Assembly (NCBI GenBank): GCA_017528825.1 | Contig: JAFXOI010000035.1 | Location: 1-64,000 of the forward strand | DNA: 64,000 bases | Source of the DNA: Elusimicrobiaceae bacterium | GTDB lineage: Bacteria > Elusimicrobiota > Elusimicrobia > Elusimicrobiales > Elusimicrobiaceae | Direction: 5' to 3' | Notes under the pieces: generated by a model | What the model was told of the DNA's origin: nothing | Seen by the model: the letters and a program-made list of their open reading frames with translations, nothing else | Databases searched by the model: none | Translations under genes and position numbers: made by a program | Shown here: positions 11,307-63,207 of the stretch, in pieces | How positions within the stretch are numbered: position 1 is the stretch's first letter | Layout of the letters: every line of letters begins with the position of its first letter

Positions 11307-11333
11307 TTGACTCGTTTTTTTTTTTGCTACGAT
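11307..11333 (+). promoter_or_regulatory. Pilin promoter with T11 spacer
   Basis: TTGACT (11307-11312) and TACGAT (11328-11333, extended by TGC) are separated by only 15 nt, of which 11 are an uninterrupted T run. The same layout with 16- and 17-nt spacers is found at 37657 and 17559. Confidence 0.7.
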
Positions 11334-11437: not shown

Positions 11438-12862
11438 ATGAAAAGAGGTTTCACCTTAATTGAACTATTAGTAGTGGTACTCATTATCGGAGTGCTGACC
11501 GCAGTTGCCTTACCGCAGTATCAAACCGCCGTAGATAAAAGCCGTTATGCTACGTTAATGCCGATGGCTAAGAGTGTGGCCAATGCCCAAGAAGCATTTT
11601 ATATGAATGGCGGACACTATTCGGATGATTTGGCCTATTTAGATGTACAGTTACCCAATGACCCGAGTGGCACCGTAGCCAATGTGGGAGACGGCTTAAA
11701 AGTAGAGATTAGTGAAGATAGTGATTATGGATTTGTAAAAATGTCCAAAGAAGGGCTAGAAAATAATTACATTATTTACCAAGAGAACAGTCTAAACTAT
11801 CCCAAAGAAATCCACTGTGAAGCATTAACAGGCAGTGAACGGGCAGAGCGTTTGTGTAAGAGCTTAGGCGGCTCATTCATTAGCGGTAGTTTAACAGATG
11901 GCTATGACACGTATGTGTTGGAAGGGGGTGGCAGCGGCACTCCGTGGAGTTTAGCACATGCCGATACAGAACCTGCAGGAGTAGAAGGATGTGACTCTTA
12001 TCCATGTGTGAAAGAATGTACAGCACAAATGAATAAAATGATGAATAATTTGTTTGGAGGAGATCTTATACCAGTATCTTGTCAGGCAACCTATCAAGAA
12101 GATGGGAGTATGACAGAAGGATTTTGTATACCAGATGAAGGGTGTGTTACTACGGAATATACCGAAACAGGAGCCAATATGACGCTATGTATGGATGTAG
12201 AGGGGCAAACATTGTGTCCGTATGAATATCAATTTAATAGCCAAGGAGAAGTAGTAGGTTACACTGGATGCAATGATATCTCAATGATTGGAGAAAATGG
12301 TAGATGTACTTCGTATTCTGATGTGGGAGAAATGACATACGAATATGATAATGAAGGAAATAAAATCAGTGCTTCAGATAGATATTGTTCAGGAGATCAT
12401 ATAAATAGTAATGGGCACTGTTCTTCATATGACGGTGGGGGAGATACTACATTTGATAACTATGGTAATCCAACGCATTATAGGCAATGTTCTTCTGGTG
12501 ATTGCACCTCGTTTAATAATGCTGTAGATTATACCTATGAGTATGATATAAATGGGAATAAGATTTCTTCATCTTCGAAGTCTTGCTGGCTTGGAGATGG
12601 TGGTGACGGAAATTGTTCAACATATGATTCTGGAGAAGATATTATTTATGACAATAATGGAATTCCTTTATCTATTCAGAGTTGTAGTTTTTATGATGAA
12701 GACGGCAATTGTAGACATGTTCCTTTATCTAGAATTGAGAATACATATGATGAAAATGGAAATAGAATATCATATAGAGAATGTCATGCCTGGGGCGGGG
12801 GATGTGGCGATGACGGGTGTTCCTCTCAGTGTGATAGTTGGTCAGATTGGATTTCTCTATAG
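11438..12862 (+). CDS. Type IV pilin-like protein with YD/RHS-like repeats
   Basis: 474 residues from the ATG at 11438, which has GGGAGG 4 nt upstream; an in-frame TTG at 11426 lies ahead of that site and is rejected. The N-terminus MKRG/FTLIELLVVVLIIG is a standard prepilin signal with Gly at -1 and Glu at +5. Residues 30-150 are a pilin-type domain that shares the HCEALTGSERAERLC motif with the other large pilins. From about residue 260 to 450 there are six YD-like units such as YEYDNEGNKIS, YEYDINGNKIS and TYDENGNRIS, each ending in Cys about ten residues later and alternating with C-S/T-x-Y/F segments. These resemble the YD motifs of RHS proteins but are much shorter. It is probably a surface head domain; function unknown. 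Confidence 0.85.
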   Translation: MKRGFTLIELLVVVLIIGVLTAVALPQYQTAVDKSRYATLMPMAKSVANAQEAFYMNGGHYSDDLAYLDVQLPNDPSGTVANVGDGLKVEISEDSDYGFVKMSKEGLENNYIIYQENSLNYPKEIHCEALTGSERAERLCKSLGGSFISGSLTDGYDTYVLEGGGSGTPWSLAHADTEPAGVEGCDSYPCVKECTAQMNKMMNNLFGGDLIPVSCQATYQEDGSMTEGFCIPDEGCVTTEYTETGANMTLCMDVEGQTLCPYEYQFNSQGEVVGYTGCNDISMIGENGRCTSYSDVGEMTYEYDNEGNKISASDRYCSGDHINSNGHCSSYDGGGDTTFDNYGNPTHYRQCSSGDCTSFNNAVDYTYEYDINGNKISSSSKSCWLGDGGDGNCSTYDSGEDIIYDNNGIPLSIQSCSFYDEDGNCRHVPLSRIENTYDENGNRISYRECHAWGGGCGDDGCSSQCDSWSDWISL

Positions 12863-17532: not shown

Positions 17533-17587
17533 TTTTCTCGTCGGAAAATAAAAAAGGCTTGACTTGTTTTTTTTTTTTTTTTACTAT
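17533..17587 (+). promoter_or_regulatory. Pilin promoter with T16 tract and upstream inverted repeat
   Basis: Inverted repeat TTTTC/GAAAA (17533-17537/17544-17548), then AATAAAAAAGG-like DNA, the -35 TTGACT (17559-17564), and -10 TACTAT (17582-17587) with a 17-nt spacer. T16 covers 17567-17582. The stretch from TTTTCTCGTCG to TTGACTTG is almost the same as at 37631-37664. Confidence 0.7.
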
Positions 17588-17605: not shown

Positions 17606-17746
17606 AAGGAGGTTGTTTGTTGTAAATAAAATAAGGTCATCCTGAAGTGTTTTAGTTCAGGATCTCCAACTTATTTTAAAGAAAGCGGAGGAGATGCTGA
17701 GCAAAGACGACTCAGCATGACAATATGAATTATTAAAGGAGGTTGT
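17606..17746. repeat. Palindromic repeat element flanked by direct repeats, copy 2
   Basis: AAGGAGGTTGT occurs at 17606-17616 and again at 17736-17746, around about 119 bp that hold two hairpins: TCCTGAA/TTCAGGA (17640-17646/17656-17662) and ATGCTGAG/CTCAGCAT (17694-17701/17711-17718). The outer parts GTCAT and ATGAC are also inverted. The 11-bp direct repeats look like a target duplication, and one copy is the pilin ribosome binding site. Related units lie at 10911-11130. Confidence 0.7.
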
Positions 17747-17748
17747 AT

Positions 17749-18252
17749 ATGTTGTTAAGAAATAACAGAGCGTTCACGCTCATTGAGTTGTTGGTAGTAG
17801 TATTAATCATCGGCATATTGTCAGCTATTGCCTTGCCGCAGTATGAAAAGGCAGTAGCCAAAGCGCGTTTTGTACAATTACAAACGATGATGAATTCCTA
17901 TGAAAAAGCTGGACATATTGCATTAGCTACCAATGGATACGTGACGGATGGAACCAATTATCTAACTGGCACCAATGCAATTGCAGATATATCTATACAA
18001 GGAACTCCAGAAGGATCTATCACCAAAACAGAGTGGGGGGATATTACATCTAATTGTGGTTGGGGATACTGTTGGTTAAATTTTAGTGGTAAAGGGAAAT
18101 ATGCTGGAGTTACTATTAATTATGAATGGGGAAATTCAACGCACCAGAGTGTATTTGCTGCTAGCTCATCTCAAAATGCTGCCATGCAGAAAGTACTTTG
18201 TGAATGGGCGAATTCTTATTCATCTAACGTTACTGAACCAAAGTGTAAATGA
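17749..18252 (+). CDS. Type IV pilin-like protein, small
   Basis: 167 residues from ATG 17749, with AAAGGAGG 6 nt upstream; the in-frame TTG at 17743 is too close to that site. Leader MLLRNNRA, then FTLIELLVVVLIIGILSAIALPQYEKAVAKAR; cleavage would follow Ala, not Gly. The rest is a compact pilin head with TSNCGWGYCW and a C-terminal Cys pair (KVLCEW...PKCK) that could form the disulfide loop typical of type IV pilins. It is transcribed alone from a poly-T promoter and its leader carries a palindromic repeat element. Confidence 0.87.
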   Translation: MLLRNNRAFTLIELLVVVLIIGILSAIALPQYEKAVAKARFVQLQTMMNSYEKAGHIALATNGYVTDGTNYLTGTNAIADISIQGTPEGSITKTEWGDITSNCGWGYCWLNFSGKGKYAGVTINYEWGNSTHQSVFAASSSQNAAMQKVLCEWANSYSSNVTEPKCK

Positions 18253-37508: not shown

Positions 37509-37631
37509 GTATATATTGTAGCAAAGACGCTATATCAAAAAAATAGTCAAAATTTTCAGAGTTCCCCACACACCGTTATTTCACGCAGAAACTCTGTGAG
37601 GGTCTGCTTTTGTTGTTTCTTGTTTGTTCGT

Positions 37632-37684
37632 TTTCTCGTCGAGAAATAAAAAAGGCTTGACTTGTTTTTTTTTTTTGCTACGAT
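37632..37684 (+). promoter_or_regulatory. Pilin promoter with T12 spacer and inverted repeat
   Basis: Inverted repeat TTTCTCG-T-CGAGAAA (37632-37646), 10 bp, the -35 TTGACT (37657-37662), 16-nt spacer containing T12 (37665-37676), and TGC-TACGAT (-10 at 37679-37684). A leader of about 80 nt follows. The gap 37509-37770 holds nothing else that can be recognised apart from a loose CAGAGTT/AACTCTG repeat. Confidence 0.7.
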
Positions 37685-37722: not shown

Positions 37723-37776
37723 AAACGTTGCATTACGGGCGTTTTAAGATGATTAAACAGGAGAATAAAAATGTCA
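37723..37776 (+). repeat. Pilin leader, copy 2
   Basis: Identical over 54 nt to positions 1-54. It covers the end of the leader, the CAGGAG site and the first two codons; the next codon already differs. Confidence 0.9.
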
Positions 37777-38985
37777 AGGAAAGCCTTTACTTTAATTGAA
37801 TTACTAATCGTAGTTCTGATTATCGGAGTGTTAAGTGCTATTGCTATCCCGATGTATCAAGGAGCAGTAGATAAAAGTCATTGGAGTACCATGCTCCCCG
37901 GAGCCAAAGCGATAAAAGACGCGGAAGAAGCATTTAAGATGTCCAATGACGGATATACCAGTGAAATGGGAAATCTTGATGTGACTATGGAAAATAGTGA
38001 TTTAACATTTAATTTAATCACCCCCAATAACACCTCTGACCCTAATGTAATCAGAGTAACGAATAGCAAACTAGCCAATGTCAGACTAGCCAGTTACTTA
38101 AATGACAATCCAAAATTTGCCGGACAACTACATTGTGAAGCAGTCACCGGAGACGAAAGAGCAAACCGACTTTGCGGTGGTTTGTTACAAGGACAAGAAT
38201 TAACTTCGGCTGATGGTTATACGGGTTATTTGTTAGACCAATCTATTGATAAAGCCACCTGTGATAATGCCAGTCGCTCTTGGAGCACAAGTAAAACAAA
38301 ATGTTATAAAGATACTGCCACTCGTTGTACAGATTTAGGTATGGGTGTAATTGCCAGTATGGATGATCAGTGCGGATATGAAAATGGCGTTAGTGGACAG
38401 GTAGTTGGTGCAGAAGGAATTTGTATAGCTACGGGTGGCAATTCTTGTAACGGCGTTATTGTAAAAGATGGTGGAAAATGCCAAGGACAAGGAGCCGAGT
38501 GGGCGTGTCGGGGAGCACACATACAAGAGGGAGGTGTTTGCATTGGATGCAGAAATCCTATTATAGAAGAAGGCGGGGTGCTCTATCATTCCAATGGTGG
38601 GGCACGCATTCAACAAGGTGGCGCGTGTGTGGCGACCAAGGACACGACTACTGGTGATCCCTGTAGAGATTCTGCGGTAAACGGAGGAGCCGTCATTTGT
38701 AATACGGCTCAAAAAAACTATTGCGGTTATGGTGCAACTTTTGATAATGGCGGAATTTGTGTAGCCAATGGACTTGGCAATGCTTGTTGGGGTGCAACAC
38801 TTACAAATAATAGTATTTGTTATGCAAATGTAGCGAATAGTACATGTGACACGTCTCAGTACGCCCACGTCTCTTATGATGAAACCTCTTGTTGTTGCGG
38901 AGACTACTGCGGAGCTTCTCGTCAGTGTTCGTCTGCACGCTGTGCAGAGGCTATTGCTCCATATCAAAAGTATTTAGACGAATAA
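37771..38985 (+). CDS. Type IV pilin-like protein with expanded Cys-rich repeat head
   Basis: 404 residues, paralogue of the protein at 49. Within the first 181 residues only nine differ, yet the DNA carries many silent changes, so the N-terminal domain is under strong purifying selection. Prepilin signal MSRKA/FTLIELLIVVLIIG with Ala at -1. From about 207 to 359 there are eight 14-22-residue units (VKDGGKC, IQEGGVC, IEEGGVL, IQQGGAC, VNGGAVIC, FDNGGIC, TNNSIC), against five in the other copy; one unit has lost its Cys. The same SCCCG cluster ends the head. Probably a variable surface structure. Confidence 0.86.
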   Translation: MSRKAFTLIELLIVVLIIGVLSAIAIPMYQGAVDKSHWSTMLPGAKAIKDAEEAFKMSNDGYTSEMGNLDVTMENSDLTFNLITPNNTSDPNVIRVTNSKLANVRLASYLNDNPKFAGQLHCEAVTGDERANRLCGGLLQGQELTSADGYTGYLLDQSIDKATCDNASRSWSTSKTKCYKDTATRCTDLGMGVIASMDDQCGYENGVSGQVVGAEGICIATGGNSCNGVIVKDGGKCQGQGAEWACRGAHIQEGGVCIGCRNPIIEEGGVLYHSNGGARIQQGGACVATKDTTTGDPCRDSAVNGGAVICNTAQKNYCGYGATFDNGGICVANGLGNACWGATLTNNSICYANVANSTCDTSQYAHVSYDETSCCCGDYCGASRQCSSARCAEAIAPYQKYLDE

Positions 38986-62989: not shown

Positions 62990-63200
62990 ACAAATAAAAA
63001 CGGCCATTTATTTGTAAGCTCACGCTAATGCCTTACAATATAAACAGCCGTAGTTTGCCACTCAGTGAGTGGCAAACATTCAGCACAAAACGCCCGGGTA
63101 ATTAGTCCGTTCATTTTGTGCTTGATATCGGCTGTTTTTGGATTAGCGTGAGATTATCCTTGCGGATAATGCTCTATACTCTTCGTATAGTTCCAAAAAC
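62990..63200 (-). ncRNA. Candidate structured leader RNA (riboswitch-like) of pilin
   Basis: About 210 nt between a promoter and the pilin ribosome site. Perfect helices (plus coordinates): P1 63019-63029/63142-63152 (11 bp), P2 63042-63050/63129-63137 (9), P3 63053-63063/63067-63077 (11), P4 63082-63090/63114-63122 (9), P5 63153-63159/63164-63170 (7), P6 63174-63179/63185-63190 (6), P7 62990-62998/63007-63015 (9). P1 closes P2, which closes P3 and P4. On the minus strand P5 has a GCAA (GNRA) loop. A 9-nt stretch 63134-63142 is also complementary to 63192-63200, which competes with P2 and P1. No known riboswitch class was recognised. A small mobile repeat is the alternative. Confidence 0.6.
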
Positions 63201-63207
63201 AGAATAA

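What the first reader, a model, noticed from the sequence alone, without database searches (positions are those of the whole stretch)
17533..17587. Poly-T tracts of different length form the promoter spacers of three pilin genes
All three plus-strand pilin promoters that are fully visible have TTGACT, a T tract, then TACnAT. The tract is T11 at 11315 (15-nt spacer), T12 at 37665 (16-nt) and T16 at 17567 (17-nt). Spacer length near 17 is optimal for sigma-70-type polymerases, so gain or loss of a T would change expression. Phase variation by homopolymer tracts between -35 and -10 is established for surface genes in Neisseria and others. Here it could switch each pilin independently.
Basis: partly seen in the sequence, partly recalled or inferred. 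Interest (0 to 1): 0.72.

Follow-up and report, generated by a model that had tools for sequence, protein, structure and literature searches.

The report
T-tract promoters of dispersed pilin genes
A gut bacterium and its relatives put the same unusual promoter, with about twelve T's in a row at a critical spot, in front of dozens of scattered pilus genes; the T count is mostly kept at twelve but has changed at some genes between sister species, so it may tune or switch single pili.

Summary
The three promoters are real. They hold the only A/T runs of 9 or more in the window and belong to a genus-wide promoter set for type IV pilin genes in gut Elusimicrobiaceae. The genome holds 113 N-methyl (prepilin) matches. 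Two T-tract classes occur. Class A (11315, 37665) sits before large cysteine-rich pilins and is nearly fixed: T12, 16-nt spacer, in 14 of 17. Class B (T16 at 17567) is variable: T6 to T16, spacer 12 to 20, over 15 open pilin frames. By homology the T16 promoter's -10 is TATCAT, which gives a 20-nt spacer, not 17.

T12 is the commonest length in 13 of 15 genomes tabulated, although genus members share only about 66-77% of their DNA. In five closer species I matched 11 orthologous promoter loci: T length differs at 4 (for example T12/T11/T10 with 98% identical upstream DNA) and is T12 throughout at 7. So gain and loss of T happens, but T12 looks like a kept set point. Switching inside a population and any effect on expression remain untested; the phase-variation reading is partly supported. 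In passing: a structured leader RNA with a locus-specific pseudoknot precedes 42 other pilins.

The parts
11307..11333 (+). class A pilin promoter: TTGACT, cg-T11-gc (15-nt spacer), TACGAT; T run 11315-11325
11438..12862 (+). class A pilin, 474 aa, N_methyl at its N terminus, long cysteine-rich C-terminal part
17610..17745 (+). dispersed repeat between the T16 promoter and its gene; copies in leaders of pilins C11:16322 and C31:100985
17749..18252 (+). class B pilin, 167 aa, N_methyl
37631..37656 (+). short palindrome (TTTTCTCGTCGAGAAA) and A-rich stretch upstream of -35, similar in many copies; candidate UP element or operator
   Evidence: by eye, no statistic
37657..37684 (+). class A pilin promoter: TTGACT, tg-T12-gc (16-nt spacer), TACGAT; T run 37665-37676
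37771..38985 (+). class A pilin, 404 aa, type IV pilin N terminus, cysteine-rich repeat C terminus
62996..63205 (-). class C control region of another pilin: structured leader RNA with pseudoknot and terminator-like hairpin (not a T-tract promoter)

Best explanation
The T tract is the spacer of a sigma-70-type promoter used almost only for pilin genes. Selection holds most copies at T12, giving a 16-nt spacer. Replication slippage adds or removes T's, so the spacing and helical phase of -35 and -10 shift and that one pilin's expression changes. Most loci are held at or pulled back to T12. A minority (class B here, four of the orthologous loci compared) wander over T8-T15 between close species and T6-T16 within this genome. 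Expression is then set locus by locus: a metastable promoter, slowly varying by our evidence and possibly fast. Shown here: the dedicated promoter set, the T12 mode, length changes at orthologous loci, open genes behind off-optimum spacers. Inferred: that length controls output, and that changes are reversible inside a population.
For: 18 copies of the motif in this genome and none of the reversed control pattern. All 17 class A copies with room downstream lie 86-104 nt before a pilin start. In relatives, 106 of 118 sites have a pilin within 400 nt, 6 are cut by the record end, 6 neither; in five sister species 131 of 137, 4 cut, 2 neither. T12 is the mode in 13 of 15 genomes. Class A flanks are only about 0.67 (80 nt upstream) and 0.65 (leader) identical at the median while T12 stays. 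Class B is far more variable than A (Levene p 1.3e-4 for spacer; permutation p 1e-4 for T length), yet 15 of 15 frames are open, 160-236 aa. Orthologous loci differ in T length at 4 of 11: T10/T8; T12/T11/T10; T10/T15/T13; T12/T10. Precedent: T-tract length beside the -35 of H. pylori sabA tunes output, T5-T22 among strains (PMC4081817, abstract and passages).
Against: No read-level or same-species data were available, so reversibility is unseen. Seven of 11 orthologous loci show no change. MutS and MutL are both present, so the tract is not obviously hypermutable. Some assemblies compared have few contigs (G021, G035, G068) and may come from long reads with homopolymer errors; using only G012-G070, 2 of 8 pairs differ. 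Expression was not measured, and spacer optima are taken from E. coli knowledge (recalled).
Confidence: 0.52

Rival explanations
1. Fixed architectural promoter. T12 is simply the required spacer (length plus the stiffness or bend of a T tract). Other lengths are slippage noise or decay at weakly selected genes, with no switching role.
For: T12 in 14 of 17 class A promoters with diverged flanks; T12 mode over genus members only about 66-77% identical; 7 of 11 orthologous loci all T12; mismatch repair present. In two G006 copies a G interrupts the tract with the spacer still 16-17.
Against: A perfect T12 run is a fragile way to keep a spacer, and the rest of the window has no A/T run of 9 or more. 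Class B genes are open behind spacers of 12-14 and 18-20.
Confidence: 0.33
2. Rheostat through DNA shape rather than spacing: the T tract together with the A-rich stretch and small palindrome upstream of -35 positions a regulator or the RNA polymerase alpha subunits, as proposed for H. pylori sabA.
For: A-rich stretch and TTTTCTCGTCGGGAAA-like palindrome recur upstream of -35 in this genome and, in variant form, in relatives; sabA precedent.
Against: In sabA the tract is adjacent to -35, not in the spacer. The palindrome was noted by eye only and not tested statistically.
Confidence: 0.08
3. The shared promoter and constant N terminus serve as homology for exchanging pilin genes between loci; the T tract is carried along.
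For: Each lineage has its own version of the -10 flank over many loci: GGTACAAT, GATACAAT, GCTACAAT, CTTACAAT, GATAAATT. At some loci both flanks match between species while the pilin region between does not.
Against: It does not explain why the T count itself is kept at 12. No breakpoint analysis was done.
Confidence: 0.05
4. The length differences are assembly or sequencing errors in homopolymers.
For: Several assemblies have few contigs and may be long-read; errors of that kind shorten runs (recalled).
Against: Differences of 2 T also occur between the two more fragmented assemblies G012 and G070 (T12/T10, T15/T13). Class A and class B differ within one assembly.
Confidence: 0.02

Closest known systems
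Neisseria porA and opc promoter-spacer phase variation (titles seen in the reference list of PMC5084427; mechanism otherwise recalled)
   Same: Homopolymer between -35 and -10 of a surface-protein gene; slippage changes the spacer length.
   Different: One or two genes with G or C tracts and proven switching; here T tracts, dozens of pilin loci per genome, a conserved T12 mode, no proof of switching.
Bordetella pertussis fim2/fim3 poly-C promoters and Mycoplasma hyorhinis vlp poly-A promoters (recalled; only a citation of the Vlp system was seen)
   Same: Several paralogous surface genes, each with its own homopolymer in the promoter.
   Different: Few genes and shown ON/OFF switching; here up to 68-86 promoters per genome and no expression data.
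Helicobacter pylori sabA T-tract rheostat (PMC4081817, abstract and passages)
   Same: T tract at a promoter, length varies T5-T22 among strains, graded effect on output.
   Different: Tract lies beside -35, not between -35 and -10; single genes; broad lengths rather than one sharp mode.
Streptococcus pyogenes Spy1336/R28 T-tract (PMC7098570, abstract and passages)
   Same: T run in the regulatory region; 9T/10T alleles alter transcript level of a surface protein.
   Different: Intergenic tract between divergent genes, not shown there as a -35/-10 spacer in the passages read; one locus.

Membership tests
Homopolymer promoter-spacer phase-variable (contingency) loci | homopolymer located between -35-like and -10-like boxes of a surface gene | tested here: met
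Homopolymer promoter-spacer phase-variable (contingency) loci | tract length varies between close relatives at the same locus | tested here: met
   4 of 11 orthologous loci, 8 of 17 pairs, across sister species only; same-species strains not available
Homopolymer promoter-spacer phase-variable (contingency) loci | reversible high-frequency length change inside one clone | not testable with these tools
   no reads, no second genome of the species
Homopolymer promoter-spacer phase-variable (contingency) loci | expression depends on tract length | not testable with these tools
   no expression data
Sigma-70-type promoter | TTGACA-like and TATAAT-like hexamers about 16-18 nt apart | tested here: inconclusive
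   class A TTGACT or TTGACC and TACVAT at 15-17 nt in 17 of 17; class B spacers 12-20 nt, 7 of 15 at 15-17; no transcript starts
Type IV pilin (N-methyl) family | prepilin N-terminal motif | tested here: met
   Pfam N_methyl over cut-off for all three window genes; PDB profile hits of the class A alignment are type IV pilins
Type IV pilin (N-methyl) family | assembly into surface pili | not tested
   assembly machinery was not surveyed

The most novel reading that the evidence does not exclude
A whole genus of gut bacteria runs a combinatorial pilin display: up to about 70-90 dispersed pilin genes per genome, each behind its own T12-set-point promoter, so slippage makes mosaic pilus repertoires. 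It would be the largest promoter-homopolymer contingency system known to me, with a second, RNA-based control layer (class C leader) on a further set of pilins.
Probability: 0.28. Interest if true: 0.85.

Novelty: new variant of a known kind. Interest (0 to 1): 0.6.

Why it matters
If true, one simple promoter rule controls a very large surface-protein family in a little-studied gut phylum. The T12 mode gives a built-in reference state, so each off-T12 locus can be tested as a switched or detuned gene from ordinary metagenome reads. It also separates two things that are often merged: a homopolymer kept at one length by selection, and a homopolymer free to vary, here side by side in one genome on the same gene family.

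Tried and rejected
Same-species strains: genome contigs and viral contigs pattern scans gave no second genome of this species (the viral scan and the first genome-contig scan found nothing, the second found 104 stretches; the 80 rows listed all bear Elusimicrobia-type names). Orthology by the RRF-adjacent locus was rejected: pilins there match mainly in the N-terminal part. Orthology by the gene block beside the T12 site was too distant, 66-77% for the main matches. Lack of mismatch repair as a cause of instability was rejected. A known RNA family for the class C leader was not found. A convincing solved structural homologue of the C-terminal part was not found: best Foldseek E 1.8e-3 to a fragment of the autotransporter TibA, TM 0.22/0.30, on a model with mean pLDDT 77.

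Rows dropped or changed. One search listed 41 pilins with a T-run box pair: 17 class A and 24 others, of which 15 were kept as class B because they share the TATCATTTAAAA-type -10 and leader. The other nine (C12:14522, C13:18868, C15:40665, C17:42029, C17:6662, C1:85609, C22:9997, C5:47305, C5:52) were left out. For C17:23485 the spacer was set by hand to 15 (TAGCAT) where the script chose 22. One class A promoter at a contig end (C39:53695, T12) has no gene and is not in the 17. In one search, rows without a T7 run were dropped, and I had already left out of the typed list some printed rows of G011, G001, G012, G035 and G028 that plainly held no T-tract promoter, and one with an interrupted tract scored below T7 (G012 C8:58178). 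G006 and G036 were only partly listed (64 of 86 and 33 of 48 used). The printed rows of G030, G015, G003 and G027 were not tabulated because they hold no or hardly any such promoter; the further genomes were not printed. In the ortholog set, one pair passing the script's rule (L351-L390) was removed by hand because its downstream divergence was 0.399; with it the count is 8 of 18 pairs. Ten of the 17 pairs rest on downstream homology up to the promoter without matching upstream DNA next to it. Tract-length searches used different lower limits (T8, T6, T7). A first script for the pseudoknot cut the wrong segment and is superseded.

Full report
What is there. The window lies on a 109-kb contig of a 1.53-Mb, 95% complete genome in 41 contigs. 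Relatives found by exact motif search are MAGs named Elusimicrobiaceae, Elusimicrobiales or Elusimicrobia, mostly from yak, roe deer, reindeer and water buffalo gut; the genome's own name was not seen. They hold the only A or T runs of 9 or more in the window.

The gene family. PF07963 (prepilin N-methyl) matches 113 places in this genome, all over the curated cut-off. I fetched the DNA around them (those in the window were read from it) and sorted the upstream regions. Class A, 17 promoters plus one at a contig end: TTGACY, YG, T11-T13, GC, TACVAT, leader of 86-104 nt. Class B, 15 promoters: TTGACA-like, a T run, then TATCAT-like and TTTAAAAA, normally a leader of about 26 nt; in five of the 15 the distance to the gene is 150-175 nt, and in three of these the repeat found at window 17610-17745 lies in between. 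Class C, 42 pilins: no T-tract promoter but a leader of about 210 nt. The rest have other or no recognised upstream elements.

Class A products. Thirteen class A proteins (two from the window and 11 others) share the first 200 residues or so (one window protein, 11438-12862, is more divergent, 29% to the other) and end in a long region rich in cysteine with repeats like GGxCxAN. A profile finds solved type IV pilins in the PDB by the N terminus (best E 1.9e-12). The AlphaFold model (mean pLDDT 77) shows the pilin helix and many short strands in the C-terminal half; its structural matches are weak and mostly beta-helical proteins.

Tract length within the genome. Class A: T11 2, T12 14, T13 1; spacer 15, 16, 17. 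Class B: T6 to T16; spacer 12 to 20. The variances differ (Levene p 1.3e-4 for spacer and 3.6e-4 for T length; permutation p 1e-4). Class A keeps T12 although paired flanks are only 0.67 (80 nt upstream) and 0.65 (leader) identical at the median over 136 pairs. All 15 class B genes are open over 160-236 aa, 8 of them behind spacers of 12-14 or 18-20 nt. The T16 site belongs to class B. By homology its -10 is TATCAT, 20 nt from -35, so the idea that this promoter has the optimal 17-nt spacer is doubtful.

Tract length across the genus. T12 is the commonest length in 13 of 15 genomes tabulated: G006 54 of 64, G036 28 of 33, G033 16 of 26, G023 4 of 5, G064 8 of 16, G028 11 of 23, G001 2 of 5, G070 56 of 68, G021 17 of 32, G012 14 of 21, G035 4 of 6, G068 5 of 10, and class A here 14 of 17. 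G011 ties at 1 of 2, and G019 has T13 and T14 only. My hand sum is 234 of 330. These genomes share about 66-77% of nucleotides with the window in an orthologous block, so T12 has outlived extensive sequence change. Each lineage has its own version of the -10 flank. The promoters are almost exclusive to pilins: 106 of 118 sites within 400 nt, 6 cut off, 6 neither, and 131 of 137, 4 cut off, 2 neither.

The ortholog test. The closest thing to isolates was a group of sister species (G021, G070, G012, G035, G068; 93-95% identical at some loci, 82-84% at others). I fetched their T-tract sites, aligned upstream and downstream DNA separately up to the promoter and kept pairs whose homology reaches it. 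Eleven loci and 17 pairs remain. Seven loci are T12 in all species compared. Four differ: T10 against T8; T12, T11 and T10 in three species with 98% identical 900-nt upstream DNA; T10, T15 and T13; T12 against T10 with downstream DNA 98% identical. In the downstream flanks, runs of 6-8 nt show an indel in 5 of 117 cases; these are shorter runs and so only a rough control. G021, G035 and G068 have few contigs and might carry long-read homopolymer errors; between G012 and G070 alone, 2 of 8 pairs differ.

How it most likely works. A sigma-70-type polymerase reads TTGACT and the -10 box; the T tract sets their spacing. T12 (16 nt) is the set point that selection keeps at most loci. Slippage changes the number of T's, and off-set-point loci exist here (class B) and in sister species. 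That pilin output then changes is inferred from general promoter knowledge (recalled) and from precedents: the T tract at H. pylori sabA changes promoter output with length (PMC4081817, abstract and passages) and 9T/10T alleles change R28 transcripts in S. pyogenes (PMC7098570, abstract and passages). MutS and MutL are present.

Literature. Searches for Elusimicrobi with pilin, pili, pseudopilin, riboswitch or phase variation, and for Avelusimicrobium, listed no paper whose title or printed start of abstract describes this promoter, the pilin expansion or the leader RNA. PMC11257099 says pilins are the only appendages encoded in Endomicrobiaceae (passage). The E. minutum genome paper was not held, so it may already describe many pilins.

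A finding outside the question. Thirty-six class C leaders (of 42; six divergent ones left out) align over 234 columns; 27 of 49 predicted pairs show double compensatory changes. A pseudoknot joins the segment before the 3' strand of the first stem to the loop of the terminator-like hairpin: 35 of 36 leaders have a perfect run of 8-11 Watson-Crick pairs there, all 36 sequences are different, and only 20 of 1260 mismatched combinations reach 7 (permutation p 1e-4). The terminator's 5' arm can also pair with the end of the first stem (seen in the sequence), so an attenuator is likely. A covariance model finds it in 62 of 66 genus genomes. Of 12 loci examined, 7 precede pilins and 5 precede lipoprotein-like, exported or other frames. 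Rfam gave no match at E up to 10 over the leader for five sources that hold one.

Noticed in passing
window 62996-63205 (-); 42 pilin leaders in the genome; L321-L332: A structured leader RNA of about 210 nt with a terminator-like hairpin and a long pseudoknot whose sequence differs in every copy (36 distinct keys; 35 of 36 with 8-11 perfect pairs). Found in 62 of 66 genus genomes, no Rfam match over it. Candidate new attenuator or riboswitch class for envelope genes.
   Followed up: partly
G000 whole genome: 113 N-methyl (prepilin) matches in 1.53 Mb, mostly single dispersed genes: an exceptional pilin expansion.
   Followed up: partly
window 17610-17745: Dispersed repeat (GGTCATCCTGAA...TTCAGGATCTCC...GACTCAGCATGAC) lodged between the T16 promoter and its pilin; full or partial copies near other pilins.
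   Followed up: partly
window 37631-37646 and the same place in other copies: Short palindrome TTTTCTCGTCGAGAAA or variants plus an A-rich stretch upstream of -35 in several species: candidate operator or UP element, not tested statistically.
   Followed up: no
L344, L351, L381, L394, L400 and others (G012, G021, G070): In the sister-species group the -10 lies in an inverted repeat, GATAAATTTTGGCTATGACCAAAATTTATC-like: possible operator over the start site.
   Followed up: no
L338, L350, L362 (G068, G035, G021): Flanks up to 93% identical between species while the promoter-pilin region between them does not align: pilin replacement at a fixed site.
   Followed up: no
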